Positions 652 to 45,151 of a stretch of DNA of 64,000 bases are shown piece by piece. Made by a program: the position numbers and the translations under genes. Origin of the DNA: Tridacna crocea. Lineage: Eukaryota > Mollusca > Bivalvia > Cardiida > Cardiidae. Every line of letters starts with the position of its first letter. Position 1 is the stretch's first letter. The stretch lies in the NCBI GenBank assembly GCA_943736015.1, contig OX031057.1, forward strand, positions 57,990,001 to 58,054,000, in the 5' to 3' direction. Under the pieces are notes generated by a model. That model was not told where the DNA came from. It saw nothing but the letters and a program-made list of their open reading frames with translations, and did not search any database.

Positions 652-699
652 AAAATAACACTGACACTGGCATTTCTTTGAGTAAAATGGGTGACAGAA

Positions 700-6194: not shown

Positions 6195-6290
6195 CTGTGG
6201 ATTCATATAATTTCGTTGGTATGAAATTTCGTGGATTTTTCAAATTCGGCATTTTCGTTGGACCGTAAATTCGTTGATTTTCCATTTCCA
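6195..6290 (+). repeat. Left terminal and subterminal repeat region of the transposon
   Basis: Starts CTGTGGATTCATATAATTTC and carries four TTCGT-G motifs (two TTCGTTGG, one TTCGTGGA, one TTCGTTGA) within about 90 bp. They probably serve as repeated transposase-binding sites; that role is inference. Confidence 0.7.
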
Positions 6291-7597: not shown

Positions 7598-7676
7598 CGG
7601 GAACTTGAATTCGTGGACTTACCTACCAACGAAATCAACGAAAATTAGTACTCAACGAATATTAATGGTTTCACAG
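7598..7676 (-). repeat. Right terminal and subterminal repeat region of the transposon
   Basis: Read on the minus strand it starts CTGTGAAACCATTAATATTC and has TTCGTTGA, TTCGTTGA and TTCGTTGG. It mirrors the left end in spacing style but not base for base. Confidence 0.7.
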
Positions 7677-7678
7677 TA
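7677..7678. repeat. TA target-site duplication, right
   Basis: Right copy of the TA. The satellite resumes with CTTTGCTTTTCATTG at the base expected from the other units. Confidence 0.85.
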
Positions 7679-12863: not shown

Positions 12864-14762
12864 TAGCAAACCACTTCTCATGTTCATTTACCTGGCTATC
12901 AGACCACCAAAACAGTGTAACAGAAGGAAAATTTTCACACATTCAGATTAATGTTTTGAATTTGAAATTTGTGTTTAATGTCTAGAGCTAAGGGAGGTTA
13001 AATGAACACAAAAACAAACGGGGGAATTAAAAAGGTAGTAGTTGCTCAGATTCCAAGCCTGTCCACCAGTAACTAAGACTAAAAGCATTTTGGGACCTGC
13101 CATCTGACCCACTGAGCCAGAGAAGCAGTTGATTTCAACCCAGAAAATTGACCTACTTATATTTAGCCCCCCTCCCCCCCCTTTTGTTCCAAAACATAGA
13201 AGTAGTTCCATTTGAAAGTTAGATCAATGCCCATATGAAATTTTGATATCAAGCATATTTGTCACTCTGTTTCTTTCAGACAAAAATGGAAGGCTATGTT
13301 TAAAAGGTGTTTCTGGTGTTGGTATGATCGTATCTTGAAAATGAGAGCATGAATGTGTTATTTCTTTAGGAACTACTTTGCTTTTCATTGACCTAATTAC
13401 GCATAACGGTCTGCTAGGAGTAAAAACCTGGTTTTAAATTAACTTTGCCAGTGTATTTTAAGGCTTATATGTAATTCTTTTGAGAATGGCTGGCATGCAA
13501 AATCAACATGTATGCCAAAATAACACTGACACTGGCATTTCTTTGAGTAAAATGGGTGACAGAAGGTCGGGTTCTAAACCGATCGACCCGCACCCCCCAC
13601 CCACCTGAGTTATTTATATCGATATGAAGGGTCTGTCTATTGTTCAGATCAGCTTCCTTGTCTCACACCCAACACTTTGGATGTATTGAGATGATCAAAG
13701 AAAACATGATGAAGAATCATGCCTAGCCTAATTAAATAAACCAGAGACCCCACTTATTTCAAAAGCAACTTGCAGCTGTTGCAAGAAAAAAATGAGCAAA
13801 GCAAACTTTAAGTGCCCTTTTCTCTACATGAAGTTGTTTAAAACAGCAAGAAAAATACTTTGGGGTTGTACTGATGGCATGTTTTGACAGGAAAGATGTT
13901 GCAGAAAACAGATAAATCACTAATTAATAGATCTAGATAAAAAGAACATGAATAATAAAGAAAGAAAATCATGAGTTTTCTTAAGTGCAGGATGGGGGAA
14001 AAATTGCTCAGTGTTGCTTTAAGATAGCCTGATATGTTTAAAGGAGTTGTCAATTAATTTTGCTTGGTAAAGTGGAAAACCAAAAAAAGGGCTCGTTACG
14101 TTGCACTTTGCCAGGCTAAAGCGGGCAAAATGTTGCGAATTTACATTTTGTCTTTTCGTGCCCCAACGACATACAGTCAGAAAGCACGCAATGACTAAAT
14201 GTAGAGTAGAAACTGTGATAATTTTGAAAAATGACCCTGTGATCTATGGCACTTACGCAGACGTGAAAACATGAATTCAACAAGAGGCACTAATAATGCT
14301 GTTTTTCTTGATTACTTGGTGGGAAAAAAAACACTGGAAAATACATGTATACTCTCCTGATTGAATTGTCTCTATTTCGGAATGACAAAATTAGTCACAC
14401 AAACGACCGAAGCGAGAAAGTGAATGTGAAACCCAGATTTACGCTTAACTGCATGTACCAAAATGCCATATATCATTGGGTCTTCATCACAATCCATTTC
14501 CGAGCCTATCATTGTTTTCCCGTTTAAGCGGTTGAAGCATGTCATCGCGAGCAGAAGTATTATCATGTCGGTTCGGGATATCTTCCCAGCCAATGCTTGG
14601 TAAGCCGTATGCGTTGGGGTAAGACAAAGAAGCCAATGAATATAAATCAAAGTAGACAAGTAGAGATACTGTGTTATGAGATGGGAAATAACCCTTGCAA
14701 CTCTGATTGCAGACTACACTTCTCCAGTAAGAGTAACTGTTCCTGACCCCTTTAACAGCTTA
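12864..14762. repeat. Satellite unit 7 (left breakpoint of the eight-unit block)
   Basis: 1899 bp. Poly-C run 8 (unit 15 has 11). Private C to T at 14427. Its last 30 bases match unit 15: A at 14735 and the extra A in TTTAACAGC. The start of the higher-order duplication therefore falls inside this unit. Confidence 0.95.
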
Positions 14763-16661
14763 TAGCAAACCACTTCTCATGTTCATTTACCTGGCTATCA
14801 GACCACCAAAACAGTGTAACAGAAGGAAAATTTTCACACATTCAGATTAATGTTTTGAATTTGAAATTTGTGTTTAATGTCTAGAGCTAAGGGAGGTTAA
14901 ATGAACACAAAAACAAACGGGGGAATTAAAAAGGTAGTAGTTGCTCAGATTCCAAGCCTGTCCACCAGTAACTAAGACTAAAAGCATTTTGGGACCTGCC
15001 ATCTGACCCACTGAGCCAGAGAAGCAGTTGATTTCAACCCAGAAAATTGACCTACTTATATTTAGCCCCCCTCCCCCCCCCTTTTGTTCCAAAACATAGA
15101 AGTAGTTCCATTTGAAAGTTAGATCAATGCCCATATGAAATTTTGATATCAAGCATATTTGTCACTCTGTTTCTTTCAGACAAAAATGGAAGGCTATGTT
15201 TAAAAGGTGTTTCTGGTGTTGGTATGATCGTATCTTGAAAATGAGAGCATGAATGTGTTATTTCTTTAGGAACTACTTTGCTTTTCATTGTCCTAATTAC
15301 GCATAACGGTCTGCTAGGAGTAAAAACCTGGTTTTAAATTAACTTTGCCAGTGTATTTTAAGGCTTATATGTAATTCTTTTGAGAATGGCTGGCATGCAA
15401 AATCAACATGTATGCCAAAATAACACTGACACTGGCATTTCTTTGAGTAAAATGGGTGACAGAAGGTCGGGTTCTAAACCGATCGACCCGCACCCCCCAC
15501 CCACCTGAGTTATTTATATCGATATGAAGGGTCTGTCTATTGTTCAGATCAGCTTCCTTGTCTCACACCCAACACTTTGGATGTATTGAGATGATCAAAG
15601 AAAACATGATGAAGAATCATGCCTAGCCTAATTAAATAAACCAGAGACCCCACTTATTTCAAAAGCAACTTGCAGCTGTTGCAAGAAAAAAATGAGCAAA
15701 GCAAACTTTAAGTGCCCTTTTCTCTACATGAAGTTGTTTAAAACAGCAAGAAAAATACTTTGGGGTTGTACTGATGGCATGTTTTGACAGGAAAGATGTT
15801 GCAGAAAACAGATAAATCACTAATTAATAGATCTAGATAAAAAGAACATGAATAATAAAGAAAGAAAATCATGAGTTTTCTTAAGTGCAGGATGGGGGAA
15901 AAATTGCTCAGTGTTGCTTTAAGATAGCCTCATATGTTTAAAGGAGTTGTCAATTAATTTTGCTTGGTAAAGTGGAAAACCAAAAAAAGGGCTCGTTACG
16001 TTGCACTTTGCCAGGCTAAAGCGGGCAAAATGTTGCGAATTTACATTTTGTCTTTTCGTGCCCCAACGACATACAGTCAGAAAGCACGCAATGACTAAAT
16101 GTAGAGTAGAAACTGTGATAATTTTGAAAAATGACCCTGTGATCTATGGCACTTACGCAGACGTGAAAACATGAATTCAACAAGAGGCACTAATAATGCT
16201 GTTTTTCTTGATTACTTGGTGGGAAAAAAAACACTGGAAAATACATGTATACTCTCCTGATTGAATTGTCTCTATTTCGGAATGACAAAATTAGTCACAC
16301 AAACGACCGAAGCGAGAAAGTGAATGCGAAACCCAGATTTACGCTTAACTGCATGTACCAAAATGCCATATATCATTGGGTCTTCATCACAATCCATTTC
16401 CGAGCCTATCATTGTTTTCCCGTTTAAGCGGTTGAAGCATGTCATCGCGAGCAGAAGTATTATCATGTCGGTTCGGGATATCTTCCCAGCCAATGCTTGG
16501 TAAGCCGTATGCGTTGGGGTAAGACAAAGAAGCCAATGAATATAAATCAAAGTAGACAAGTAGAGATACTGTGTTATGAGATGGGAAATAACCCTTGCAA
16601 CTCTGATTGCAGACTACACTTCTCCAGTAAGAGTTACTGTTCCTGACCCCTTTACAGCTTA
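14763..16661. repeat. Satellite unit 8
   Basis: 1899 bp. Poly-C run 9. T at 15291 (A in the consensus) and C at 15931 (CATATG), both repeated in unit 16. Confidence 0.95.
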
Positions 16662-18559
16662 TAGCAAACCACTTCTCATGTTCATTTACCTGGCTATCAG
16701 ACCACCAAAACAGTGTAACAGAAGGAAAATTTTCACACATTCAGATTAATGTTTTGAATTTGAAATTTGTGTTTAATGTCTAGAGCTAAGGGAGGTTAAA
16801 TGAACACAAAAACAAACGGGGGAATTAAAAAGGTAGTAGTTGCTCAGATTCCAAGCCTGTCCACCAGTAACTAAGACTAAAAGCATTTTGGGACCTGCCA
16901 TCTGACCCACTGAGCCAGAGAAGCAGTTGATTTCAACCCAGAAAATTGACCTACTTATATTTAGCCCCCCTCCCCCCCCTTTTGTTCCAAAACATAGAAG
17001 TAGTTCCATTTGAAAGTTAGATCAATGCCCATATGAAATTTTGATATCAAGCATATTTGTCACTCTGTTTCTTTCAGACAAAAATGGAAGGCTATGTTTA
17101 AAAGGTGTTTCTGGTGTTGGTATGATCGTATCTTGAAAATGAGAGCATGAATGTGTTATTTCTTTAGGAACTACTTTGCTTTTCATTGACCTAATTACGC
17201 ATAACGGTCTGCTAGGAGTAAAAACCTGGTTTTAAATTAACTTTGCCAGTGTATTTTAAGGCTTATATGTAATTCTTTTGAGAATGGCTGGCATGCAAAA
17301 TCAACATGTATGCCAAAATAACACTGACACTGGCATTTCTTTGAGTAAAATGGGTGACAGAAGGTCGGGTTCTAAACCGATCGACCCGCACCCCCCACCC
17401 ACCTGAGTTATTTATATCGATATGAAGGGTCTGTCTATTGTTCAGATCAGCTTCCTTGTCTCACACCCAACACTTTGGATGTATTGAGATGATCAAAGAA
17501 AACATGATGAAGAATCATGCCTAGCCTAATTAAATAAACCAGAGACCCCACTTATTTCAAAAGCAACTTGCAGCTGTTGCAAGAAAAAAATGAGCAAAGC
17601 AAACTTTAAGTGCCCTTTTCTCTACATGAAGTTGTTTAAAACAGCAAGAAAAATACTTTGGGGTTGTACTGATGGCATGTTTTGACAGGAAAGATGTTGC
17701 AGAAAACAGATAAATCACTAATTAATAGATCTAGATAAAAAGAACATGAATAATAAAGAAAGAAAATCATGAGTTTTCTTAAGTGCAGGATGGGGGAAAA
17801 ATTGCTCAGTGTTGCTTTAAGATAGCCTGATATGTTTAAAGGAGTTGTCAATTAATTTTGCTTGGTAAAGTGGAAAACCAAAAAAAGGGCTCGTTACGTT
17901 GCACTTTGCCAGGCTAAAGCGGGCAAAATGTTGCGAATTTACATTTTGTCTTTTCGTGCCCCAACGACATACAGTCAGAAAGCACGCAATGACTAAATGT
18001 AGAGTAGAAACTGTGATAATTTTGAAAAATGACCCTGTGATCTATGGCACTTACGCAGACGTGAAAACATGAATTCAACAAGAGGCACTAATAATGCTGT
18101 TTTTCTTGATTACTTGGTGGGAAAAAAAACACTGGAAAATACATGTATACTCTCCTGATTGAATTGTCTCTATTTCGGAATGACAAAATTAGTCACACAA
18201 ACGACCGAAGCGAGAAAGTGAATGCGAAACCCAGATTTACGCTTAACTGCATGTACCAAAATGCCATATATCATTGGGTCTTCATCACAATCCATTTCCG
18301 AGCCTATCATTGTTTTCCCGTTTAAGCGGTTGAAGCATGTCATCGCGAGCAGAAGTATTATCATGTCGGTTCGGGATATCTTCCCAGCCAATGCTTGGTA
18401 AGCCGTATGCGTTGGGGTAAGACAAAGAAGCCAATGAATATAAATCAAAGTAGACAAGTAGAGATACTGTGTTATGAGATGGGAAATAACCCTTGCAACT
18501 CTGATTGCAGACTACACTTCTCCAGTAAGAGTTACTGTTCCTGACCCCTTTACAGCTTA
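16662..18559. repeat. Satellite unit 9
   Basis: 1898 bp. Poly-C run 8. Close to consensus. Partner of unit 17, from which it differs at 16756 (G here, T in unit 17). Confidence 0.95.
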
Positions 18560-20457
18560 TAGCAAACCACTTCTCATGTTCATTTACCTGGCTATCAGAC
18601 CACCAAAACAGTGTAACAGAAGGAAAATTTTCACACATTCAGATTAATGTTTTGAATTTGAAATTTGTGTTTAATGTCTAGAGCTAAGGGAGGTTAAATG
18701 AACACAAAAACAAACGGGGGAATTAAAAAGGTAGTAGTTGCTCAGATTCCAAGCCTGTCCACCAGTAACTAAGACTAAAAGCATTTTGGGACCTGCCATC
18801 TGACCCACTGAGCCAGAGAAGCAGTTGATTTCAACCCAGAAAATTGACCTACTTATATTTAGCCCCCCTCCCCCCCCTTTTGTTCCAAAACATAGAAGTA
18901 GTTCCATTTGAAAGTTAGATCAATGCCCATATGAAATTTTGATATCAAGCATATTTGTCACTCTGTTTCTTTCAGACAAAAATGGAAGGCTATGTTTAAA
19001 AGGTGTTTCTGGTGTTGGTATGATCGTATCTTGAAAATGAGAGCATGAATGTGTTATTTCTTTAGGAACTACTTTGCTTTTCATTGACCTAATTACGCAT
19101 AACGGTCTGCTAGGAGTAAAAACCTGGTTTTAAATTAACTTTGCCAGTGTATTTTAAGGCTTATATGTAATTCTTTTGAGAATGGCTGGCATGCAAAATC
19201 AACATGTATGCCAAAATAACACTGACACTGGCATTTCTTTGAGTAAAATGGGTGACAGAAGGTCGGGTTCTAAACCGATCGACCCGCACCCCCCACCCAC
19301 CTGAGTTATTTATATCGATGTGAAGGGTCTGTCTATTGTTCAGATCAGCTTCCTTGTCTCACACCCAACACTTTGGATGTATTGAGATGATCAAAGAAAA
19401 CATGATGAAGAATCATGCCTAGCCTAATTAAATAAACCAGAGACCCCACTTATTTCAAAAGCAACTTGCAGCTGTTGCAAGAAAAAAATGAGCAAAGCAA
19501 ACTTTAAGTGCCCTTTTCTCTACATGAAGTTGTTTAAAACAGCAAGAAAAATACTTTGGGGTTGTACTGATGGCATGTTTTGACAGGAAAGATGTTGCAG
19601 AAAACAGATAAATCACTAATTAATAGATCTAGATAAAAAGAACATGAATAATAAAGAAAGAAAATCATGAGTTTTCTTAAGTGCAGGATGGGGGAAAAAT
19701 TGCTCAGTGTTGCTTTAAGATAGCCTGATATGTTTAAAGGAGTTGTCAATTAATTTTGCTTGGTAAAGTGGAAAACCAAAAAAAGGGCTCGTTACGTTGC
19801 ACTTTGCCAGGCTAAAGCGGGCAAAATGTTGCGAATTTACATTTTGTCTTTTCGTGCCCCAACGACATACAGTCAGAAAGCACGCAATGACTAAATGTAG
19901 AGTAGAAACTGTGATAATTTTGAAAAATGACCCTGTGATCTATGGCACTTACGCAGACGTGAAAACATGAATTCAACAAGAGGCACTAATAATGCTGTTT
20001 TTCTTGATTACTTGGTGGGAAAAAAAACACTGGAAAATACATGTATACTCTCCTGATTGAATTGTCTCTATTTCGGAATGACAAAATTAGTCACACAAAC
20101 GACCGAAGCGAGAAAGTGAATGCGAAACCCAGATTTACGCTTAACTGCATGTACCAAAATGCCATATATCATTGGGTCTTCATCACAATCCATTTCCGAG
20201 CCTATCATTGTTTTCCCGTTTAAGCGGTTGAAGCATGTCATCGCGAGCAGAAGTATTATCATGTCGGTTCGGGATATCTTCCCAGCCAATGCTTGGTAAG
20301 CCGTATGCGTTGGGGTAAGACAAAGAAGCCAATGAATATAAATCAAAGTAGACAAGTAGAGATACTGTGTTATGAGATGGGAAATAACCCTTGCAACTCT
20401 GATTGCAGACTACACTTCTCCAGTAAGAGTTACTGTTCCTGACCCCTTTACAGCTTA
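18560..20457. repeat. Satellite unit 10
   Basis: 1898 bp. Poly-C run 8. G at 19320 (ATCGATG instead of ATCGATA), matched in partner unit 18. Confidence 0.95.
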
Positions 20458-22357
20458 TAGCAAACCACTTCTCATGTTCATTTACCTGGCTATCAGACCA
20501 CCAAAACAGTGTAACAGAAGGAAAATTTTCACACATTCAGATTAATGTTTTGAATTTGAAATTTGTGTTTAATGTCTAGAGCTAAGGGAGGTTAAATGAA
20601 CACAAAAACAAACGGGGGAATTAAAAAGGTAGTAGTTGCTCAGATTCCAAGCCTGTCCACCAGTAACTAAGACTAAAAGCATTTTGGGACCTGCCATCTG
20701 ACCCACTGAGCCAGAGAAGCAGTTGATTTCAACCCAGAAAATTGACCTACTTATATTTAGCCCCCCTCCCCCCCCCCTTTTGTTCCAAAACATAGAAGTA
20801 GTTCCATTTGAAAGTTAGATCAATGCCCATATGAAATTTTGATATCAAGCATATTTGTCACTCTGTTTCTTTCAGACAAAAATGGAAGGCTATGTTTAAA
20901 AGGTGTTTCTGGTGTTGGTATGATCGTATCTTGAAAATGAGAGCATGAATGTGTTATTTCTTTAGGAACTACTTTGCTTTTCATTGACCTAATTACGCAT
21001 AACGGTCTGCTAGGAGTAAAAACCTGGTTTTAAATTAACTTTGCCAGTGTATTTTAAGGCTTATATGTAATTCTTTTGAGAATGGCTGGCATGCAAAATC
21101 AACATGTATGCCAAAATAACACTGACACTGGCATTTCTTTGAGTAAAATGGGTGACAGAAGGTCGGGTTCTAAACCGATCGACCCGCACCCCCCACCCAC
21201 CTGAGTTATTTATATCGATATGAAGGGTCTGTCTATTGTTCAGATCAGCTTCCTTGTCTCACACCCAACACTTTGGATGTATTGAGATGATCAAAGAAAA
21301 CATGATGAAGAATCATGCCTAGCCTAATTAAATAAACCAGAGACCCCACTTATTTCAAAAGCAACTTGCAGCTGTTGCAAGAAAAAAATGAGCAAAGCAA
21401 ACTTTAAGTGCCCTTTTCTCTACATGAAGTTGTTTAAAACAGCAAGAAAAATACTTTGGGGTTGTACTGATGGCATGTTTTGACAGGAAAGATGTTGCAG
21501 AAAACAGATAAATCACTAATTAATAGATCTAGATAAAAAGAACATGAATAATAAAGAAAGAAAATCATGAGTTTTCTTAAGTGCAGGATGGGGGAAAAAT
21601 TGCTCAGTGTTGCTTTAAGATAGCCTGATATGTTTAAAGGAGTTGTCAATTAATTTTGCTTGGTAAAGTGGAAAACCAAAAAAAGGGCTCGTTACGTTGC
21701 ACTTTGCCAGGCTAAAGCGGGCAAAATGTTGCGAATTTACATTTTGTCTTTTCGTGCCCCAACGACATACAGTCAGAAAGCACGCAATGACTAAATGTAG
21801 AGTAGAAACTGTGATAATTTTGAAAAATGACCCTGTGATCTATGGCACTTACGCAGACGTGAAAACATGAATTCAACAAGAGGCACTAATAATGCTGTTT
21901 TTCTTGATTACTTGGTGGGAAAAAAAACACTGGAAAATACATGTATACTCTCCTGATTGAATTGTCTCTATTTCGGAATGACAAAATTAGTCACACAAAC
22001 GACCGAAGCGAGAAAGTGAATGCGAAACCCAGATTTACGCTTAACTGCATGTACCAAAATGCCATATATCATTGGGTCTTCATCACAATCCATTTCCGAG
22101 CCTATCATTGTTTTCCCGTTTAAGCGGTTGAAGCATGTCATCGCGAGCAGAAGTATTATCATGTCGGTTCGGGATATCTTCCCAGCCAATGCTTGGTAAG
22201 CCGTATGCGTTGGGGTAAGACAAAGAAGCCAATGAATATAAATCAAAGTAGACAAGTAGAGATACTGTGTTATGAGATGGGAAATAACCCTTGCAACTCT
22301 GATTGCAGACTACACTTCTCCAGTAAGAGTTACTGTTCCTGACCCCTTTACAGCTTA
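20458..22357. repeat. Satellite unit 11
   Basis: 1900 bp. Poly-C run 10. Consensus A at 21220, where partner unit 19 has G. Confidence 0.95.
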
Positions 22358-24256
22358 TAGCAAACCACTTCTCATGTTCATTTACCTGGCTATCAGACCA
22401 CCAAAACAGTGTAACAGAAGGAAAATTTTCACACATTCAGATTAATGTTTTGAATTTGAAATTTGTGTTTAATGTCTAGAGCTAAGGGAGGTTAAATGAA
22501 CACAAAAACAAACGGGGGAATTAAAAAGGTAGTAGTTGCTCAGATTCCAAGCCTGTCCACCAGTAACTAAGACTAAAAGCATTTTGGGACCTGCCATCTG
22601 ACCCACTGAGCCAGAGAAGCAGTTGATTTCAACCCAGAAAATTGACCTACTTATATTTAGCCCCCCTCCCCCCCCCTTTTGTTCCAAAACATAGAAGTAG
22701 TTCCATTTGAAAGTTAGATCAATGCCCATATGAAATTTTGATATCAAGCATATTTGTCACTCTGTTTCTTTCAGACAAAAATGGAAGGCTATGTTTAAAA
22801 GGTGTTTCTGGTGTTGGTATGATCGTATCTTGAAAATGAGAGCATGAATGTGTTATTTCTTTAGGAACTACTTTGCTTTTCATTGACCTAATTACGCATA
22901 ACGGTCTGCTAGGAGTAAAAACCTGGTTTTAAATTAACTTTGCCAGTGTATTTTAAGGCTTATATGTAATTCTTTTGAGAATGGCTGGCATGCAAAATCA
23001 ACATGTATGCCAAAATAACACTGACACTGGCATTTCTTTGAGTAAAATGGGTGACAGAAGGTCGGGTTCTAAACCGATCGACCCGCACCCCCCACCCACC
23101 TGAGTTATTTATATCGATATGAAGGGTCTGTCTATTGTTCAGATCAGCTTCCTTGTCTCACACCCAACACTTTGGATGTATTGAGATGATCAAAGAAAAC
23201 ATGATGAAGAATCATGCCTAGCCTAATTAAATAAACCAGAGACCCCACTTATTTCAAAAGCAACTTGCAGCTGTTGCAAGAAAAAAATGAGCAAAGCAAA
23301 CTTTAAGTGCCCTTTTCTCTACATGAAGTTGTTTAAAACAGCAAGAAAAATACTTTGGGGTTGTACTGATGGCATGTTTTGACAGGAAAGATGTTGCAGA
23401 AAACAGATAAATCACTAATTAATAGATCTAGATAAAAAGAACATGAATAATAAAGAAAGAAAATCATGAGTTTTCTTAAGTGCAGGATGGGGGAAAAATT
23501 GCTCAGTGTTGCTTTAAGATAGCCTGATATGTTTAAAGGAGTTGTCAATTAATTTTGCTTGGTAAAGTGGAAAACCAAAAAAAGGGCTCGTTACGTTGCA
23601 CTTTGCCAGGCTAAAGCGGGCAAAATGTTGCGAATTTACATTTTGTCTTTTCGTGCCCCAACGACATACAGTCAGAAAGCACGCAATGACTAAATGTAGA
23701 GTAGAAACTGTGATAATTTTGAAAAATGACCCTGTGATCTATGGCACTTACGCAGACGTGAAAACATGAATTCAACAAGAGGCACTAATAATGCTGTTTT
23801 TCTTGATTACTTGGTGGGAAAAAAAACACTGGAAAATACATGTATACTCTCCTGATTGAATTGTCTCTATTTCGGAATGACAAAATTAGTCACACAAACG
23901 ACCGAAGCGAGAAAGTGAATGCGAAACCCAGATTTACGCTTAACTGCATGTACCAAAATGCCATATATCATTGGGTCTTCATCACAATCCATTTCCGAGC
24001 CTATCATTGTTTTCCCGTTTAAGCGGTTGAAGCATGTCATCGCGAGCAGAAGTATTATCATGTCGGTTCGGGATATCTTCCCAGCCAATGCTTGGTAAGC
24101 CGTATGCGTTGGGGTAAGACAAAGAAGCCAATGAATATAAATCAAAGTAGACAAGTAGAGATACTGTGTTATGAGATGGGAAATAACCCTTGCAACTCTG
24201 ATTGCAGACTACACTTCTCCAGTAAGAGTTACTGTTCCTGACCCCTTTACAGCTTA
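22358..24256. repeat. Satellite unit 12
   Basis: 1899 bp. Poly-C run 9. No private change noticed. Partner of unit 20. Confidence 0.95.
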
Positions 24257-26155
24257 TAGCAAACCACTTCTCATGTTCATTTACCTGGCTATCAGACCAC
24301 CAAAACAGTGTAACAGAAGGAACATTTTCACACATTCAGATTAATGTTTTGAATTTGAAATTTGTGTTTAATGTCTAGAGCTAAGGGAGGTTAAATGAAC
24401 ACAAAAACAAACGGGGGAATTAAAAAGGTAGTAGTTGCTCAGATTCCAAGCCTGTCCACCAGTAACTAAGACTAAAAGCATTTTGGGACCTGCCATCTGA
24501 CCCACTGAGCCAGAGAAGCAGTTGATTTCAACCCAGAAAATTGACCTACTTATATTTAGCCCCCCTCCCCCCCCCTTTTGTTCCAAAACATAGAAGTAGT
24601 TCCATTTGAAAGTTAGATCAATGCCCATATGAAATTTTGATATCAAGCATATTTGTCACTCTGTTTCTTTCAGACAAAAATGGAAGGCTATGTTTAAAAG
24701 GTGTTTCTGGTGTTGGTATGATCGTATCTTGAAAATGAGAGCATGAATGTGTTATTTCTTTAGGAACTACTTTGCTTTTCATTGACCTAATTACGCATAA
24801 CGGTCTGCTAGGAGTAAAAACCTGGTTTTAAATTAACTTTGCCAGTGTATTTTAAGGCTTATATGTAATTCTTTTGAGAATGGCTGGCATGCAAAATCAA
24901 CATGTATGCCAAAATAACACTGACACTGGCATTTCTTTGAGTAAAATGGGTGACAGAAGGTCGGGTTCTAAACCGATCGACCCGCACCCCCCACCCACCT
25001 GAGTTATTTATATCGATATGAAGGGTCTGTCTATTGTTCAGATCAGCTTCCTTGTCTCACACCCAACACTTTGGATGTATTGAGATGATCAAAGAAAACA
25101 TGATGAAGAATCATGCCTAGCCTAATTAAATAAACCAGAGACCCCACTTATTTCAAAAGCAACTTGCAGCTGTTGCAAGAAAAAAATGAGCAAAGCAAAC
25201 TTTAAGTGCCCTTTTCTCTACATGAAGTTGTTTAAAACAGCAAGAAAAATACTTTGGGGTTGTACTGATGGCATGTTTTGACAGGAAAGATGTTGCAGAA
25301 AACAGATAAATCACTAATTAATAGATCTAGATAAAAAGAACATGAATAATAAAGAAAGAAAATCATGAGTTTTCTTAAGTGCAGGATGGGGGAAAAATTG
25401 CTCAGTGTTGCTTTAAGATAGCCTGATATGTTTAAAGGAGTTGTCAATTAATTTTGCTTGGTAAAGTGGAAAACCAAAAAAAGGGCTCGTTACGTTGCAC
25501 TTTGCCAGGCTAAAGCGGGCAAAATGTTGCGAATTTACATTTTGTCTTTTCGTGCCCCAACGACATACAGTCAGAAAGCACGCAATGACTAAATGTAGAG
25601 TAGAAACTGTGATAATTTTGAAAAATGACCCTGTGATCTATGGCACTTACGCAGACGTGAAAACATGAATTCAACAAGAGGCACTAATAATGCTGTTTTT
25701 CTTGATTACTTGGTGGGAAAAAAAACACTGGAAAATACATGTATACTCTCCTGATTGAATTGTCTCTATTTCGGAATGACAAAATTAGTCACACAAACGA
25801 CCGAAGCGAGAAAGTGAATGCGAAACCCAGATTTACGCTTAACTGCATGTACCAAAATGCCATATATCATTGGGTCTTCATCACAATCCATTTCCGAGCC
25901 TATCATTGTTTTCCCGTTTAAGCGGTTGAAGCATGTCATCGCGAGCAGAAGTATTATCATGTCGGTTCGGGATATCTTCCCAGCCAATGCTTGGTAAGCC
26001 GTATGCGTTGGGGTAAGACAAAGAAGCCAATGAATATAAATCAAAGTAGACAAGTAGAGATACTGTGTTATGAGATGGGAAATAACCCTTGCAACTCTGA
26101 TTGCAGACTACACTTCTCCAGTAAGAGTTACTGTTCCTGACCCCTTTACAGCTTA
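24257..26155. repeat. Satellite unit 13
   Basis: 1899 bp. Poly-C run 9. C at 24323 (GGAACATTTT instead of GGAAAATTTT). Partner unit 21 and units 14, 22 and 24-29 share it. Confidence 0.95.
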
Positions 26156-33754: not shown

Positions 33755-35652
33755 TAGCAAACCACTTCTCATGTTCATTTACCTGGCTATCAGACCACCA
33801 AAACAGTGTAACAGAAGGAAAATTTTCACACATTCAGATTAATGTTTTGAATTTGAAATTTGTGTTTAATGTCTAGAGCTAAGGGAGGTTAAATGAACAC
33901 AAAAACAAACGGGGGAATTAAAAAGGTAGTAGTTGCTCAGATTCCAAGCCTGTCCACCAGTAACTAAGACTAAAAGCATTTTGGGACCTGCCATCTGACC
34001 CACTGAGCCAGAGAAGCAGTTGATTTCAACCCAGAAAATTGACCTACTTATATTTAGCCCCCCTCCCCCCCCTTTTGTTCCAAAACATAGAAGTAGTTCC
34101 ATTTGAAAGTTAGATCAATGCCCATATGAAATTTTGATATCAAGCATATTTGTCACTCTGTTTCTTTCAGACAAAAATGGAAGGCTATGTTTAAAAGGTG
34201 TTTCTGGTGTTGGTATGATCGTATCTTGAAAATGAGAGCATGAATGTGTTATTTCTTTAGGAACTACTTTGCTTTTCATTGACCTAATTACGCATAACGG
34301 TCTGCTAGGAGTAAAAACCTGGTTTTAAATTAACTTTGCCAGTGTATTTTAAGGCTTATATGTAATTCTTTTGAGAATGGCTGGCATGCAAAATCAACAT
34401 GTATGCCAAAATAACACTGACACTGGCATTTCTTTGAGTAAAATGGGTGACAGAAGGTCGGGTTCTAAACCGATCGACCCGCACCCCCCACCCACCTGAG
34501 TTATTTATATCGATGTGAAGGGTCTGTCTATTGTTCAGATCAGCTTCCTTGTCTCACACCCAACACTTTGGATGTATTGAGATGATCAAAGAAAACATGA
34601 TGAAGAATCATGCCTAGCCTAATTAAATAAACCAGAGACCCCACTTATTTCAAAAGCAACTTGCAGCTGTTGCAAGAAAAAAATGAGCAAAGCAAACTTT
34701 AAGTGCCCTTTTCTCTACATGAAGTTGTTTAAAACAGCAAGAAAAATACTTTGGGGTTGTACTGATGGCATGTTTTGACAGGAAAGATGTTGCAGAAAAC
34801 AGATAAATCACTAATTAATAGATCTAGATAAAAAGAACATGAATAATAAAGAAAGAAAATCATGAGTTTTCTTAAGTGCAGGATGGGGGAAAAATTGCTC
34901 AGTGTTGCTTTAAGATAGCCTGATATGTTTAAAGGAGTTGTCAATTAATTTTGCTTGGTAAAGTGGAAAACCAAAAAAAGGGCTCGTTACGTTGCACTTT
35001 GCCAGGCTAAAGCGGGCAAAATGTTGCGAATTTACATTTTGTCTTTTCGTGCCCCAACGACATACAGTCAGAAAGCACGCAATGACTAAATGTAGAGTAG
35101 AAACTGTGATAATTTTGAAAAATGACCCTGTGATCTATGGCACTTACGCAGACGTGAAAACATGAATTCAACAAGAGGCACTAATAATGCTGTTTTTCTT
35201 GATTACTTGGTGGGAAAAAAAACACTGGAAAATACATGTATACTCTCCTGATTGAATTGTCTCTATTTCGGAATGACAAAATTAGTCACACAAACGACCG
35301 AAGCGAGAAAGTGAATGCGAAACCCAGATTTACGCTTAACTGCATGTACCAAAATGCCATATATCATTGGGTCTTCATCACAATCCATTTCCGAGCCTAT
35401 CATTGTTTTCCCGTTTAAGCGGTTGAAGCATGTCATCGCGAGCAGAAGTATTATCATGTCGGTTCGGGATATCTTCCCAGCCAATGCTTGGTAAGCCGTA
35501 TGCGTTGGGGTAAGACAAAGAAGCCAATGAATATAAATCAAAGTAGACAAGTAGAGATACTGTGTTATGAGATGGGAAATAACCCTTGCAACTCTGATTG
35601 CAGACTACACTTCTCCAGTAAGAGTTACTGTTCCTGACCCCTTTACAGCTTA
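33755..35652. repeat. Satellite unit 18
   Basis: 1898 bp. Poly-C run 8. G at 34515, as in unit 10. Confidence 0.95.
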
Positions 35653-37552
35653 TAGCAAACCACTTCTCATGTTCATTTACCTGGCTATCAGACCACCAAA
35701 ACAGTGTAACAGAAGGAAAATTTTCACACATTCAGATTAATGTTTTGAATTTGAAATTTGTGTTTAATGTCTAGAGCTAAGGGAGGTTAAATGAACACAA
35801 AAACAAACGGGGGAATTAAAAAGGTAGTAGTTGCTCAGATTCCAAGCCTGTCCACCAGTAACTAAGACTAAAAGCATTTTGGGACCTGCCATCTGACCCA
35901 CTGAGCCAGAGAAGCAGTTGATTTCAACCCAGAAAATTGACCTACTTATATTTAGCCCCCCTCCCCCCCCCCTTTTGTTCCAAAACATAGAAGTAGTTCC
36001 ATTTGAAAGTTAGATCAATGCCCATATGAAATTTTGATATCAAGCATATTTGTCACTCTGTTTCTTTCAGACAAAAATGGAAGGCTATGTTTAAAAGGTG
36101 TTTCTGGTGTTGGTATGATCGTATCTTGAAAATGAGAGCATGAATGTGTTATTTCTTTAGGAACTACTTTGCTTTTCATTGACCTAATTACGCATAACGG
36201 TCTGCTAGGAGTAAAAACCTGGTTTTAAATTAACTTTGCCAGTGTATTTTAAGGCTTATATGTAATTCTTTTGAGAATGGCTGGCATGCAAAATCAACAT
36301 GTATGCCAAAATAACACTGACACTGGCATTTCTTTGAGTAAAATGGGTGACAGAAGGTCGGGTTCTAAACCGATCGACCCGCACCCCCCACCCACCTGAG
36401 TTATTTATATCGATGTGAAGGGTCTGTCTATTGTTCAGATCAGCTTCCTTGTCTCACACCCAACACTTTGGATGTATTGAGATGATCAAAGAAAACATGA
36501 TGAAGAATCATGCCTAGCCTAATTAAATAAACCAGAGACCCCACTTATTTCAAAAGCAACTTGCAGCTGTTGCAAGAAAAAAATGAGCAAAGCAAACTTT
36601 AAGTGCCCTTTTCTCTACATGAAGTTGTTTAAAACAGCAAGAAAAATACTTTGGGGTTGTACTGATGGCATGTTTTGACAGGAAAGATGTTGCAGAAAAC
36701 AGATAAATCACTAATTAATAGATCTAGATAAAAAGAACATGAATAATAAAGAAAGAAAATCATGAGTTTTCTTAAGTGCAGGATGGGGGAAAAATTGCTC
36801 AGTGTTGCTTTAAGATAGCCTGATATGTTTAAAGGAGTTGTCAATTAATTTTGCTTGGTAAAGTGGAAAACCAAAAAAAGGGCTCGTTACGTTGCACTTT
36901 GCCAGGCTAAAGCGGGCAAAATGTTGCGAATTTACATTTTGTCTTTTCGTGCCCCAACGACATACAGTCAGAAAGCACGCAATGACTAAATGTAGAGTAG
37001 AAACTGTGATAATTTTGAAAAATGACCCTGTGATCTATGGCACTTACGCAGACGTGAAAACATGAATTCAACAAGAGGCACTAATAATGCTGTTTTTCTT
37101 GATTACTTGGTGGGAAAAAAAACACTGGAAAATACATGTATACTCTCCTGATTGAATTGTCTCTATTTCGGAATGACAAAATTAGTCACACAAACGACCG
37201 AAGCGAGAAAGTGAATGCGAAACCCAGATTTACGCTTAACTGCATGTACCAAAATGCCATATATCATTGGGTCTTCATCACAATCCATTTCCGAGCCTAT
37301 CATTGTTTTCCCGTTTAAGCGGTTGAAGCATGTCATCGCGAGCAGAAGTATTATCATGTCGGTTCGGGATATCTTCCCAGCCAATGCTTGGTAAGCCGTA
37401 TGCGTTGGGGTAAGACAAAGAAGCCAATGAATATAAATCAAAGTAGACAAGTAGAGATACTGTGTTATGAGATGGGAAATAACCCTTGCAACTCTGATTG
37501 CAGACTACACTTCTCCAGTAAGAGTTACTGTTCCTGACCCCTTTACAGCTTA
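35653..37552. repeat. Satellite unit 19
   Basis: 1900 bp. Poly-C run 10. G at 36415, unlike partner unit 11 but like its left neighbour unit 18. Confidence 0.95.
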
Positions 37553-39451
37553 TAGCAAACCACTTCTCATGTTCATTTACCTGGCTATCAGACCACCAAA
37601 ACAGTGTAACAGAAGGAAAATTTTCACACATTCAGATTAATGTTTTGAATTTGAAATTTGTGTTTAATGTCTAGAGCTAAGGGAGGTTAAATGAACACAA
37701 AAACAAACGGGGGAATTAAAAAGGTAGTAGTTGCTCAGATTCCAAGCCTGTCCACCAGTAACTAAGACTAAAAGCATTTTGGGACCTGCCATCTGACCCA
37801 CTGAGCCAGAGAAGCAGTTGATTTCAACCCAGAAAATTGACCTACTTATATTTAGCCCCCCTCCCCCCCCCTTTTGTTCCAAAACATAGAAGTAGTTCCA
37901 TTTGAAAGTTAGATCAATGCCCATATGAAATTTTGATATCAAGCATATTTGTCACTCTGTTTCTTTCAGACAAAAATGGAAGGCTATGTTTAAAAGGTGT
38001 TTCTGGTGTTGGTATGATCGTATCTTGAAAATGAGAGCATGAATGTGTTATTTCTTTAGGAACTACTTTGCTTTTCATTGACCTAATTACGCATAACGGT
38101 CTGCTAGGAGTAAAAACCTGGTTTTAAATTAACTTTGCCAGTGTATTTTAAGGCTTATATGTAATTCTTTTGAGAATGGCTGGCATGCAAAATCAACATG
38201 TATGCCAAAATAACACTGACACTGGCATTTCTTTGAGTAAAATGGGTGACAGAAGGTCGGGTTCTAAACCGATCGACCCGCACCCCCCACCCACCTGAGT
38301 TATTTATATCGATATGAAGGGTCTGTCTATTGTTCAGATCAGCTTCCTTGTCTCACACCCAACACTTTGGATGTATTGAGATGATCAAAGAAAACATGAT
38401 GAAGAATCATGCCTAGCCTAATTAAATAAACCAGAGACCCCACTTATTTCAAAAGCAACTTGCAGCTGTTGCAAGAAAAAAATGAGCAAAGCAAACTTTA
38501 AGTGCCCTTTTCTCTACATGAAGTTGTTTAAAACAGCAAGAAAAATACTTTGGGGTTGTACTGATGGCATGTTTTGACAGGAAAGATGTTGCAGAAAACA
38601 GATAAATCACTAATTAATAGATCTAGATAAAAAGAACATGAATAATAAAGAAAGAAAATCATGAGTTTTCTTAAGTGCAGGATGGGGGAAAAATTGCTCA
38701 GTGTTGCTTTAAGATAGCCTGATATGTTTAAAGGAGTTGTCAATTAATTTTGCTTGGTAAAGTGGAAAACCAAAAAAAGGGCTCGTTACGTTGCACTTTG
38801 CCAGGCTAAAGCGGGCAAAATGTTGCGAATTTACATTTTGTCTTTTCGTGCCCCAACGACATACAGTCAGAAAGCACGCAATGACTAAATGTAGAGTAGA
38901 AACTGTGATAATTTTGAAAAATGACCCTGTGATCTATGGCACTTACGCAGACGTGAAAACATGAATTCAACAAGAGGCACTAATAATGCTGTTTTTCTTG
39001 ATTACTTGGTGGGAAAAAAAACACTGGAAAATACATGTATACTCTCCTGATTGAATTGTCTCTATTTCGGAATGACAAAATTAGTCACACAAACGACCGA
39101 AGCGAGAAAGTGAATGCGAAACCCAGATTTACGCTTAACTGCATGTACCAAAATGCCATATATCATTGGGTCTTCATCACAATCCATTTCCGAGCCTATC
39201 ATTGTTTTCCCGTTTAAGCGGTTGAAGCATGTCATCGCGAGCAGAAGTATTATCATGTCGGTTCGGGATATCTTCCCAGCCAATGCTTGGTAAGCCGTAT
39301 GCGTTGGGGTAAGACAAAGAAGCCAATGAATATAAATCAAAGTAGACAAGTAGAGATACTGTGTTATGAGATGGGAAATAACCCTTGCAACTCTGATTGC
39401 AGACTACACTTCTCCAGTAAGAGTTACTGTTCCTGACCCCTTTACAGCTTA
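37553..39451. repeat. Satellite unit 20
   Basis: 1899 bp. Poly-C run 9. No difference from partner unit 12 noticed. Confidence 0.95.
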
Positions 39452-41350
39452 TAGCAAACCACTTCTCATGTTCATTTACCTGGCTATCAGACCACCAAAA
39501 CAGTGTAACAGAAGGAACATTTTCACACATTCAGATTAATGTTTTGAATTTGAAATTTGTGTTTAATGTCTAGAGCTAAGGGAGGTTAAATGAACACAAA
39601 AACAAACGGGGGAATTAAAAAGGTAGTAGTTGCTCAGATTCCAAGCCTGTCCACCAGTAACTAAGACTAAAAGCATTTTGGGACCTGCCATCTGACCCAC
39701 TGAGCCAGAGAAGCAGTTGATTTCAACCCAGAAAATTGACCTACTTATATTTAGCCCCCCTCCCCCCCCCTTTTGTTCCAAAACATAGAAGTAGTTCCAT
39801 TTGAAAGTTAGATCAATGCCCATATGAAATTTTGATATCAAGCATATTTGTCACTCTGTTTCTTTCAGACAAAAATGGAAGGCTATGTTTAAAAGGTGTT
39901 TCTGGTGTTGGTATGATCGTATCTTGAAAATGAGAGCATGAATGTGTTATTTCTTTAGGAACTACTTTGCTTTTCATTGACCTAATTACGCATAACGGTC
40001 TGCTAGGAGTAAAAACCTGGTTTTAAATTAACTTTGCCAGTGTATTTTAAGGCTTATATGTAATTCTTTTGAGAATGGCTGGCATGCAAAATCAACATGT
40101 ATGCCAAAATAACACTGACACTGGCATTTCTTTGAGTAAAATGGGTGACAGAAGGTCGGGTTCTAAACCGATCGACCCGCACCCCCCACCCACCTGAGTT
40201 ATTTATATCGATATGAAGGGTCTGTCTATTGTTCAGATCAGCTTCCTTGTCTCACACCCAACACTTTGGATGTATTGAGATGATCAAAGAAAACATGATG
40301 AAGAATCATGCCTAGCCTAATTAAATAAACCAGAGACCCCACTTATTTCAAAAGCAACTTGCAGCTGTTGCAAGAAAAAAATGAGCAAAGCAAACTTTAA
40401 GTGCCCTTTTCTCTACATGAAGTTGTTTAAAACAGCAAGAAAAATACTTTGGGGTTGTACTGATGGCATGTTTTGACAGGAAAGATGTTGCAGAAAACAG
40501 ATAAATCACTAATTAATAGATCTAGATAAAAAGAACATGAATAATAAAGAAAGAAAATCATGAGTTTTCTTAAGTGCAGGATGGGGGAAAAATTGCTCAG
40601 TGTTGCTTTAAGATAGCCTGATATGTTTAAAGGAGTTGTCAATTAATTTTGCTTGGTAAAGTGGAAAACCAAAAAAAGGGCTCGTTACGTTGCACTTTGC
40701 CAGGCTAAAGCGGGCAAAATGTTGCGAATTTACATTTTGTCTTTTCGTGCCCCAACGACATACAGTCAGAAAGCACGCAATGACTAAATGTAGAGTAGAA
40801 ACTGTGATAATTTTGAAAAATGACCCTGTGATCTATGGCACTTACGCAGACGTGAAAACATGAATTCAACAAGAGGCACTAATAATGCTGTTTTTCTTGA
40901 TTACTTGGTGGGAAAAAAAACACTGGAAAATACATGTATACTCTCCTGATTGAATTGTCTCTATTTCGGAATGACAAAATTAGTCACACAAACGACCGAA
41001 GCGAGAAAGTGAATGCGAAACCCAGATTTACGCTTAACTGCATGTACCAAAATGCCATATATCATTGGGTCTTCATCACAATCCATTTCCGAGCCTATCA
41101 TTGTTTTCCCGTTTAAGCGGTTGAAGCATGTCATCGCGAGCAGAAGTATTATCATGTCGGTTCGGGATATCTTCCCAGCCAATGCTTGGTAAGCCGTATG
41201 CGTTGGGGTAAGACAAAGAAGCCAATGAATATAAATCAAAGTAGACAAGTAGAGATACTGTGTTATGAGATGGGAAATAACCCTTGCAACTCTGATTGCA
41301 GACTACACTTCTCCAGTAAGAGTTACTGTTCCTGACCCCTTTACAGCTTA
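39452..41350. repeat. Satellite unit 21
   Basis: 1899 bp. Poly-C run 9. C at 39518, as in unit 13. Confidence 0.95.
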
Positions 41351-43250
41351 TAGCAAACCACTTCTCATGTTCATTTACCTGGCTATCAGACCACCAAAAC
41401 AGTGTAACAGAAGGAACATTTTCACACATTCAGATTAATGTTTTGAATTTGAAATTTGTGTTTAATGTCTAGAGCTAAGGGAGGTTAAATGAACACAAAA
41501 ACAAACGGGAGAATTAAAAAGGTAGTAGTTGCTCAGATTCCAAGCCTGTCTACCAGTAACTAAGACTAAAAGCATTTTGGGACCTGCCATCTGACCCACT
41601 GAGCCAGAGAAGCAGTTGATTTCAACCCAGAAAATTGACCTACTTATATTTAGCCCCCCTCCCCCCCCCCTTTTGTTCCAAATCATAGAAGTAGTTCCAT
41701 TTGAAAGTTAGATCAATGCCCATATGAAATTTTGATATCAAGCATATTTGTCACTCTGTTTCTGTCAGACAAAAATGGAAGGCTATGTTTAAAAGGTGTT
41801 TCTGGTGTTGGTATGATCGTATCTTGAAAATGAGAGCATGAATGTGTTATTTCTTTAGGAACTACTTTGCTTTTCATTGACCTAATTACGCATAACGGTC
41901 TGCTAGGAGTAAAAACCTGGTTTTAAATTAACTTTGCCAGTGTATTTTAAGGCTTATATGTAATTCTTTTGAGAATGGCTGGCATGCAAAATCAACATGT
42001 ATGCCAAAATAACACTGACACTGGCATTTCTTTGAGTAAAATGGGTGACAGAAGGTCGGGTTCTAAACCGATCGACCCGCACCCCCCACCCACCTGAGTT
42101 ATTTATATCGATGTGAAGGGTCTGTCTATTGTTCAGATCAGCTTCCTTGTCTCACACCCAACACTTTGGATGTATTGAGATGATCAAAGAAAACATGATG
42201 AAGAATCATGCCTAGCCTAATTAAATAAACCAGAGACCCCACTTATTTCAAAAGCAACTTGCAGCTGTTGCAAGAAAAAAATGAGCAAAGCAAACTTTAA
42301 GTGCCCTTTTCTCTACATGAAGTTGTTTAAAACAGCAAGAAAAATACTTTGGGGTTGTACTGATGGCATGTTTTGACAGGAAAGATGTTGCAGAAAACAG
42401 ATAAATCACTAATTAATAGATCTAGATAAAAAGAACATGAATAATAAAGAAAGAAAATCATGAGTTTTCTTAAGTGCAGGATGGGGGAAAAATTGCTCAG
42501 TGTTGCTTTAAGATAGCCTGATATGTTTAAAGGAGTTGTCAATTAATTTTGCTTGGTAAAGTGGAAAACCAAAAAAAGGGCTCGTTACGTTGCACTTTGC
42601 CAGGCTAAAGCGGGCAAAATGTTGCGAATTTACATTTTGTCTTTTCGTGCCCCAACGACATACAGTCAGAAAGCACGCAATGACTAAATGTAGAGTAGAA
42701 ACTGTGATAATTTTGAAAAATGACCCTGTGATCTATGGCACTTACGCAGACGTGAAAACATGAATTCAACAAGAGGCACTAATAATGCTGTTTTTCTTGA
42801 TTACTTGGTGGGAAAAAAAACACTGGAAAATACATGTATACTCTCCTGATTGAATTGTCTCTATTTCGGAATGACAAAATTAGTCACACAAACGACCGAA
42901 GCGAGAAAGTGAATGCGAAACCCAGATTTACGCTTAACTGCATGTACCAAAATGCCATATATCATTGGGTCTTCATCACAATCCATTTCCGAGCCTATCA
43001 TTGTTTTCCCGTTTAAGCGGTTGAAGCATGTCATCGCGAGCAGAAGTATTATCATGTCGGTTCGGGATATCTTCCCAGCCAATGCTTGGTAAGCCGTATG
43101 CGTTGGGGTAAGACAAAGAAGCCAATGAATATAAATCAAAGTAGACAAGTAGAGATACTGTGTTATGAGATGGGAAATAACCCTTGCAACTCTGATTGCA
43201 GACTACACTTCTCCAGTAAGAGTTACTGTTCCTGACCCCTTTACAGCTTA
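41351..43250. repeat. Satellite unit 22
   Basis: 1900 bp. Poly-C run 10. It carries the complete unit-14 signature, including G at 42113, at +15,195. Confidence 0.96.
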
Positions 43251-45151
43251 TAGCAAACCACTTCTCATGTTCATTTACCTGGCTATCAGACCACCAAAAC
43301 AGTGTAACAGAAGGAAAATTTTCACACATTCAGATTAATGTTTTGAATTTGAAATTTGTGTTTAATGTCTAGAGCTAAGGGAGGTTAAATGAACACAAAA
43401 ACAAACGGGGGAATTAAAAAGGTAGTAGTTGCTCAGATTCCAAGCCTGTCCACCAGTAACTAAGACTAAAAGCATTTTGGGACCTGCCATCTGACCCACT
43501 GAGCCAGAGAAGCAGTTGATTTCAACCCAGAAAATTGACCTACTTATATTTAGCCCCCCTCCCCCCCCCCCTTTTGTTCCAAAACATAGAAGTAGTTCCA
43601 TTTGAAAGTTAGATCAATGCCCATATGAAATTTTGATATCAAGCATATTTGTCACTCTGTTTCTTTCAGACAAAAATGGAAGGCTATGTTTAAAAGGTGT
43701 TTCTGGTGTTGGTATGATCGTATCTTGAAAATGAGAGCATGAATGTGTTATTTCTTTAGGAACTACTTTGCTTTTCATTGACCTAATTACGCATAACGGT
43801 CTGCTAGGAGTAAAAACCTGGTTTTAAATTAACTTTGCCAGTGTATTTTAAGGCTTATATGTAATTCTTTTGAGAATGGCTGGCATGCAAAATCAACATG
43901 TATGCCAAAATAACACTGACACTGGCATTTCTTTGAGTAAAATGGGTGACAGAAGGTCGGGTTCTAAACCGATCGACCCGCACCCCCCACCCACCTGAGT
44001 TATTTATATCGATATGAAGGGTCTGTCTATTGTTCAGATCAGCTTCCTTGTCTCACACCCAACACTTTGGATGTATTGAGATGATCAAAGAAAACATGAT
44101 GAAGAATCATGCCTAGCCTAATTAAATAAACCAGAGACCCCACTTATTTCAAAAGCAACTTGCAGCTGTTGCAAGAAAAAAATGAGCAAAGCAAACTTTA
44201 AGTGCCCTTTTCTCTACATGAAGTTGTTTAAAACAGCAAGAAAAATACTTTGGGGTTGTACTGATGGCATGTTTTGACAGGAAAGATGTTGCAGAAAACA
44301 GATAAATCACTAATTAATAGATCTAGATAAAAAGAACATGAATAATAAAGAAAGAAAATCATGAGTTTTCTTAAGTGCAGGATGGGGGAAAAATTGCTCA
44401 GTGTTGCTTTAAGATAGCCTGATATGTTTAAAGGAGTTGTCAATTAATTTTGCTTGGTAAAGTGGAAAACCAAAAAAAGGGCTCGTTACGTTGCACTTTG
44501 CCAGGCTAAAGCGGGCAAAATGTTGCGAATTTACATTTTGTCTTTTCGTGCCCCAACGACATACAGTCAGAAAGCACGCAATGACTAAATGTAGAGTAGA
44601 AACTGTGATAATTTTGAAAAATGACCCTGTGATCTATGGCACTTACGCAGACGTGAAAACATGAATTCAACAAGAGGCACTAATAATGCTGTTTTTCTTG
44701 ATTACTTGGTGGGAAAAAAAACACTGGAAAATACATGTATACTCTCCTGATTGAATTGTCTCTATTTCAGAATGACAAAATTAGTCACACAAACGACCGA
44801 AGCGAGAAAGTGAATGCGAAACCCAGATTTACGCTTAACTGCATGTACCAAAATGCCATATATCATTGGGTCTTCATCACAATCCATTTCCGAGCCTATC
44901 ATTGTTTTCCCGTTTAAGCGGTTGAAGCATGTCATCGCGAGCAGAAGTATTATCATGTCGGTTCGGGATATCTTCCCAGCCAATGCTTGGTAAGCCGTAT
45001 GCGTTGGGGTAAGACAAAGAAGCCAATGAATATAAATCAAAGTAGACAAGTAGAGATACTGTGTTATGAGATGGGAAATAACCCTTGCAACTCTGATTGC
45101 AGACTACACTTCTCCAGTAAGAGTTACTGTTCCTGACCCCTTTACAGCTTA
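43251..45151. repeat. Satellite unit 23 (right breakpoint of the eight-unit block)
   Basis: 1901 bp. Poly-C run 11 like unit 15. Private G to A at 44769. It lacks the two 3' markers of unit 15, so homology to the block ends inside this unit. Confidence 0.95.

What the first reader, a model, noticed from the sequence alone, without database searches (positions are those of the whole stretch)
13175..45120. Eight-unit higher-order repeat duplicated with a period of exactly 15,195 bp
Units 8-15 and 16-23 match one to one: the same unit lengths, the same poly-C run series (9,8,8,10,9,9,10,11) and the same rare substitutions, including the five-change signature of units 14 and 22. Neighbouring units within a copy differ more than partner units 15 kb apart. 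This is the higher-order repeat architecture known from primate alpha satellite and from some plant and insect satellites, here on a 1.9-kb monomer. Breakpoints fall in the same part of the unit (inside units 7, 15 and 23), as expected for unequal exchange in register.
Basis: seen in the sequence. Interest (0 to 1): 0.8.

Follow-up and report, generated by a model that had tools for sequence, protein, structure and literature searches.

The report
One duplicated block inside a satellite
A stretch of eight near-identical 1.9-kb repeat units was copied once, head to tail, inside a large repetitive DNA array in an unnamed large genome; this is ordinary repeat turnover rather than a true higher-order repeat, although jumping genes caught in the array make the turnover measurable.

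Summary
Units 8-15 (14763-29957) and 16-23 (29958-45151) pair at offset exactly 15,195, with partner differences 0,1,0,1,0,0,0,3 against a within-block mean of 4.1. Shared variants place the junctions in units 7, 15 and 23, in register.

"Higher-order repeat architecture" does not hold. The signatures of units 14/22 and 7/15 each have exactly two exact matches in the 1.05-Gb assembly. Among 111 aligned units, offset 8 shows no excess once this block is left out, and units within the block are already about 99.8% identical. It is one recent tandem duplication.

The block lies in a 748-kb satellite array on C2, apparently non-coding. A LINE insertion in four copies and a TIR element in three show the array turning over at several scales. 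Between two LINE-bearing blocks the 6.5-kb LINE differs at 1 place and the adjacent 12.8 kb of units at 24 columns, 14 of them with both states elsewhere in the array, which suggests conversion between units. All of this rests on one assembly.

The parts
1..60814 (+). 1.9-kb (about 1,899 bp) tandem satellite array, 32 unit starts in the window; part of a 748-kb array C2:57554893-58303162
   Evidence: anchor positions; array ends from fetched edges and probes
14763..29957 (+). units 8-15, first copy of the eight-unit block
   Evidence: unit matrix and diagonal
29958..45151 (+). units 16-23, second copy of the eight-unit block
   Evidence: unit matrix and diagonal
13174..14734 (+). interval in unit 7 that holds the left junction of the duplicated segment (counterparts 28369-29929 in unit 15 and 43564-45124 in unit 23)
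   Evidence: units 7 and 15 share tail variants at alignment columns 1879 and 1898; units 15 and 23 share the 11-C head
26156..28055 (+). unit 14, whose columns 162+203 signature is found only here and in unit 22
   Evidence: columns 162, 203, 336, 417, 766; pattern search, 2 exact matches in the genome
41351..43250 (+). unit 22, partner of unit 14, 0 differences
6194..7677 (.). about 1.48-kb element with imperfect terminal inverted ends and a 3-4 bp target duplication (read by eye), in unit 4; two more copies at the same unit site in the array and dispersed relatives on other contigs (boundaries approximate)
60814..64000 (-). 3' part of an apparently full-length LINE (endonuclease, RT and RNase H domains; TTCA tail at its 3' end) inserted in unit 32 and continuing beyond the window; unit sequence resumes after about 6.5 kb

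Best explanation
The feature is a single, recent, in-register tandem duplication of eight units (15,195 bp) inside a long, apparently non-coding satellite array. Two misaligned copies of the array, shifted by eight units, exchanged or copied sequence at one matching point in unit 7 and unit 15. This gave 7head-7tail, 8..14, 15head-7tail, 8'..14', 15head-15tail, which is the order seen (shown by shared variants). Homologous pairing of nearly identical repeats is the inferred cause. Unequal crossover between sister chromatids or homologues and break-induced or template-switch replication would leave the same product and are not separated here. The same kind of event at other sizes (from one unit to a LINE-bearing seven-unit block, and jumps over 50-200 kb) shaped the parts of the array that were read, and short conversion tracts between units then blur the copies (inferred).
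For: Junction order of variants in units 7, 15 and 23. Near-identity of the copies: 5 mismatches in the 16.8-kb diagonal, of which 29930 marks the junction. Two exact matches genome-wide for each of two block signatures; a third marker, 766G, has 5 exact matches, all inside the block. The same array has three LINE copies spaced 19,835 bp twice and a fourth 165,643 bp away with the same insertion junction, three TIR-element copies at one unit site, and marker units 15,195 bp apart at 57.845/57.860 Mb. Unit divergence rises with distance, from 6.69 columns at offset 1 to 8.49 at offset 40. Edge units are less like the consensus (right 97.7 and 98.0%, left 99.5% by substitutions), as unequal exchange predicts.
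Against: It rests on one assembly; no reads, no second individual and no optical map were available. The states at 1523 and 1571 need one later mutation whichever side the breakpoint is, so it is only placed within about 1.56 kb. The mechanism of exchange is not seen directly. The second 8-unit pair (1 mismatch in the first 5.8 kb read, 11 before register is lost at about 7.97 kb) and a 15,194-bp marker spacing at 58.100/58.116 Mb could be read as a preference for jumps of this size; about two thirds of the array was not read in full, so this is not excluded.
Confidence: 0.72

Rival explanations
1. Assembly artefact: the assembler joined two haplotypes, or went twice round a loop in the graph, so that one eight-unit stretch is written out twice.
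For: Block length (15.2 kb) is near typical accurate long-read lengths (recalled); units are so alike that graph tangles are likely; 5 mismatches in 16.8 kb between copies.
Against: The copies differ at single-base substitutions (16756, 21220, 29574), which an exact loop would not give. Unit 15 is a hybrid of unit 15 head and unit 7 tail, as a true junction requires, though an allele with that junction could also be stitched in. No N in the 263,700 letters fetched nor in the window. Similar duplications tagged by LINE and TIR insertions occur elsewhere in the array, though these rest on the same assembly.
Confidence: 0.13
2. A true higher-order repeat: eight unit types amplified together as the current repeating unit of the array.
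For: Two ordered copies of eight units; partner units more alike than neighbours; a second pair of marker units 15,195 bp apart at 57.845/57.860 Mb with 1 mismatch in the first 5.8 kb read, and one 15,194-bp marker spacing at 58.100/58.116 Mb.
Against: Two block signatures have two exact matches each in the genome. Outside the block, offset 8 averages 7.34 differences over 90 pairs against 6.94 (102) and 6.60 (98) at offsets 7 and 9. Unit lengths at 57.556-57.731 Mb show no lag above the shuffle 95% level, but this is a weak test: it also misses the known block in the 244 kb. Units 24-31 do not continue the order. The second pair lies where none of the three window-block markers has an exact match, so it is another event.
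Confidence: 0.06
3. The unit is a functional gene or RNA repeat (as rDNA or snRNA clusters are) kept uniform by selection.
For: Near-uniform units; stop-free stretches of 117 and 113 codons on the minus strand, still 113 and 113 codons in one right-edge unit.
Against: No Rfam match at gathering score; on one unit only two weak snoRNA matches (E 0.65 and 1.7; 19 and 21 bits against a gathering score of 80); no tRNA; no Pfam match at E<=1 for the two longest stretches. Both long frames are interrupted in the 94.5%-identical outlying unit. Poly-C and other indels vary freely.
Confidence: 0.03

Closest known systems
Complex satellite DNA arrays evolving by unequal exchange and conversion (concerted evolution; Smith-type models as reviewed in PMC8122249, passages read)
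   Same: Tandem array of one orientation, homogeneous interior, more diverged edges, local block duplications, short-range similarity.
   Different: Monomer of 1.9 kb, longer than the common nucleosome-size units; as far as the capped listings show, one main array on one contig.
Primate alpha-satellite higher-order repeats
   Same: A multi-unit block copied as a unit; partner units closer than neighbours.
   Different: Two copies only, units within the block already about 99.8% identical, no period of eight over the 111 units aligned.
Pericentric kilobase tandem repeats such as the potato 2D8 repeat (about 3-kb monomers in 5.9-kb dimers; PMC8122249, passage read)
   Same: Kilobase-size monomers in tandem.
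   Different: No relation in sequence tested; not a regular dimer; no rRNA match found.
Molluscan satellites such as Adamussium Ac4p1 (about 726 bp) and Ac4p3 (about 237 bp) (PMC5874043, passages read)
   Same: Possibly the same phylum (my guess, from no call); tandem repeat.
   Different: Monomer size; no direct subrepeats of 14 bases or more found in the 1.9-kb unit, whereas Ac4p1 has subrepeats.

Membership tests
[quoted passage not shown]
   Two copies; two signatures with two exact matches each genome-wide; no offset-8 excess outside the block among 111 units
Higher-order repeat (alpha-satellite sense) | Monomers within a block much more diverged than blocks from each other | tested here: not met
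   Direction is right (4.1 against 0.6 columns on average) but within-block identity is about 99.8%; review value about 70% within (PMC8122249)
In-register tandem duplication by unequal exchange | Hybrid unit at the inner junction and both outer junctions at the same unit position | tested here: met
   Unit 15 = unit 15 head + unit 7 tail; unit 23 = unit 15 head + other tail
Satellite DNA array | Long one-orientation tandem array of non-coding units with low within-array divergence | tested here: met
   748 kb between the edges, sampled by probes where not read; 116 unit starts in 244 kb on + and 0 on -; mean 8.0 differing columns per unit pair over 6,105 pairs of 111 units; no coding or RNA family match
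Centromeric satellite | CENP-A/CenH3 nucleosomes on the array | not testable with these tools
   no chromatin data; the array sits at 75-76% of C2 length
rDNA, snRNA or tRNA gene cluster | Match to the RNA family in each unit | tested here: not met

The most novel reading that the evidence does not exclude
The array is the centromere core, or pericentromere, of this chromosome, built on a kilobase-size, apparently chromosome-private monomer that grew from one end of an inverted duplication. LINE and TIR insertions caught in the array then give an internal clock that separates block duplication from conversion between units, with conversion replacing unit variants faster than mutation does.
Probability: 0.15. 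Interest if true: 0.6.

Novelty: new member of a known kind. Interest (0 to 1): 0.33.

Why it matters
It shows that a striking eight-for-eight match can come from one duplication and need not mean a higher-order repeat. More usefully, non-repeat insertions copied along with array blocks let one compare, in the same block, a clock that should change mainly by mutation (the LINE) with repeat units that can also change by conversion. That would make the old question of how far exchange and conversion each homogenise satellites directly measurable in this genome.

Tried and rejected
Gene or RNA cluster: rejected (frames interrupted in the outlier). Array-wide eight-unit period: rejected on 111 aligned units (of 115 unit intervals in 244 kb; the 4 with insertions were dropped); unit lengths of a further stretch agree but are a weak test. 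In the window matrix 30 of 32 units were used; unit 4 (insertion) and unit 32 (cut by the LINE) were dropped. Internal subrepeats of the unit: no direct repeat of 14 bases or more, one weak inverted pair. Tandem Repeats Finder as run has a longest period of 500 and cannot see this unit. The genome-wide search with a whole unit was not scored, too many candidates. The third LINE block was left out of the rate test because its right flank may lie outside the copied segment; its counts (40 and 46 unit differences against 0 and 1 in the LINE) point the same way. Literature: a size search for a 1.9-kb satellite gave 34 papers, and the 20 listed are unrelated by title. Two searches for molluscan higher-order repeats (140 papers, 20 listed; 38 papers, 15 listed) and five more searches were seen as listings; none of the listed titles names such an array. 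Passages only were read of PMC5874043 and PMC8122249. The species was not identified; mollusc is a guess from genome size and sequence flavour, not a result.
Full report
What is there. The window is C2:57,990,001-58,054,000 of an unnamed 1.05-Gb assembly of 31 contigs. It lies in a tandem array of a unit of about 1,899 bp. Unit starts in the window are at 1, 1896, 3785, 5683, 9066 and on to 60341, 32 in all. Fetched edges put the array at 57,554,893-58,303,162, 748,270 bp; between the stretches that were read, sample probes fall in unit sequence. In the 244 kb read without a break, 116 unit starts are on the + strand and none on the - strand. A 32-base piece of the unit, with up to 3 mismatches, has 376 forward and 2 reverse matches genome-wide. 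Only 100 places were listed: 98 forward in the array and the 2 reverse ones elsewhere on C2. The array's length less the known insertions would hold about 378 units, so nearly all forward matches are probably in it.

The claim, checked. At offset 15,195 the ungapped diagonal runs from 13,174 to 29,949 with five mismatches. Shared 50-mers are more numerous at 15,195 (18,314) than at 1,898 (17,085) or 1,899 (16,168). Partner units 8/16 to 15/23 differ by 0,1,0,1,0,0,0,3 columns, while neighbours within the first copy differ by 3,1,3,1,1,6,9. The poly-C series is 9,8,8,10,9,9,10,11 in both copies. One small correction: unit 15 is 1,902 bp and unit 23 is 1,901 bp. In 200 shuffles of unit order, none reached the offset-8 score (53.6 against a maximum of 31.3).

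Where the junction lies. Units 7 and 15 share tail variants at alignment columns 1879 and 1898, which unit 23 lacks; units 15 and 23 share the 11-C head, which unit 7 lacks. So the copied segment runs from the tail part of unit 7 to the head part of unit 15, and the inner junction is inside unit 15. The private states at 1571 in unit 7 and 1523 in unit 23 allow a crossover either before 1523 or after 1571, with one later mutation either way (inference).

Why it is not a higher-order repeat array. The two-variant signature of unit 14 has two exact matches in the genome, 58,016,308 and 58,031,503, and five one-mismatch relatives elsewhere in the array. The tail signature of units 7 and 15 has two. 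A third marker, 766G, has five, all inside the block. Over 111 units, offset 8 without the block averages 7.34 differences (90 pairs), offset 7 6.94 (102) and offset 9 6.60 (98). A review's definition asks for amplified and homogenised blocks with diverged monomers inside (passages of PMC8122249). Results that lean the other way: a marker variant has two pairs of units exactly 15,195 bp apart at 57.845/57.860 Mb and one 15,194-bp spacing at 58.100/58.116 Mb. The stretch around the first of these has 1 mismatch in the first 5.8 kb read and 11 before register is lost at about 7.97 kb; its left end was not read. So eight-unit jumps have probably happened more than once.

Turnover at several scales. 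An apparently full-length LINE with endonuclease, RT and RNase H domains (its first frame of 528 codons has no Pfam match) sits in the array with one and the same insertion junction, found by pattern at 57,885,155, 58,050,798, 58,070,633 and 58,090,468, and nowhere else within 3 mismatches; the last three are 19,835 bp apart. A TIR element in unit 4 has identical matches of a 401-bp query at 57,734,558 and 57,787,314, in units broken at the same site; aligned more fully, the 57.734-Mb copy differs from the window copy at two element positions. Between the first two of the three tandem LINE blocks, the LINE differs at 1 place in about 6.5 kb and the unit sequence at 24 columns in about 12.8 kb. 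Of these 24 columns, 14 have both states elsewhere among the other units aligned, 6 have a state seen only here, and 4 are poly-C. The chance of so few LINE changes under one rate is 0.0005, 0.002 or 0.006 for totals of 25, 21 or 18 changes, the smaller totals after merging by hand; the 6 private columns, counted as 5 events against 1 in the LINE, fit one mutation rate (P 0.35). I read the excess as conversion from other units (inference). The test was made after seeing the data, on one pair of blocks, and homogenisation among the LINE copies themselves could add to the contrast.

Origin. A relic of about 2.6 units lies inverted at C2:55,062,389-55,067,255, 94.3-95.6% identical to the unit consensus by substitutions and 90.7-92.8% to unit 9 in BLAST alignments with gaps counted. 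The sequence just outside the array's right end matches the sequence beside the relic at 95.3% over 1.93 kb, in inverted orientation, with further weaker and tandem-type matches beyond. Two pieces of it, 400 and 401 bp, have full-length matches only at these two places; the other 3 of 5 and 9 of 11 matches are 30 to about 110 bp long. So the array's right end and the relic look like the two ends of an inverted duplicated locus 3.24 Mb apart, and the array grew on one of them (inference). The long unit frames are interrupted in the relic, so the unit is probably non-coding.

Verdict. A real, well-described, recent tandem duplication in a typical satellite array. The name higher-order repeat claims too much. 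The main doubt is the assembly, which only reads can settle. The part worth keeping is the set of insertions that can act as clocks inside the array.

Noticed in passing
C2:57885155, 58050798, 58070633, 58090468 (window 60798 on): Four copies of one LINE insertion junction in the array, three at exact 19,835-bp spacing; LINE parts differ by 0-1 between the three aligned copies, and the 3,134-bp right end of the first copy with its flank is identical to the second.
   Followed up: partly
window 6194-7677; C2:57734558; C2:57787314: A 1.48-kb TIR element at one unit site in three places of the array; 39 of the 42 matches reported (40 of 286 candidates scored) lie outside the array, 38 of them on other contigs, at 81-96% identity.
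   Followed up: partly
C2:57844859/57860054 and 57846761/57861956 (L059, L060): A second pair of unit groups exactly 15,195 bp apart: 1 mismatch in the first 5.8 kb read, 11 before register is lost at about 7.97 kb.
   Followed up: partly
C2:55062389-55067255 (L058) and C2:58305001-58306930 (L054, L061): Inverted relic of the satellite and a shared flank, 3.24 Mb apart: possible inversion breakpoints or the seed locus of the array.
   Followed up: partly
C2:58303384-58304802 (L054 flank): The right end of the array is followed by a degenerate 165-bp tandem repeat, 8.6 copies.
   Followed up: no
C2:57790501-57790860 (L056 7501-7860): A 360-bp insertion with inverted ends (by eye) in one unit; no other unit interval read has this length.
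   Followed up: no
C2:58299202-58303006 (L054): Two units at the right edge are 2.0 and 2.3% from the consensus by substitutions, the left edge unit 0.5%: an uneven gradient.
   Followed up: no
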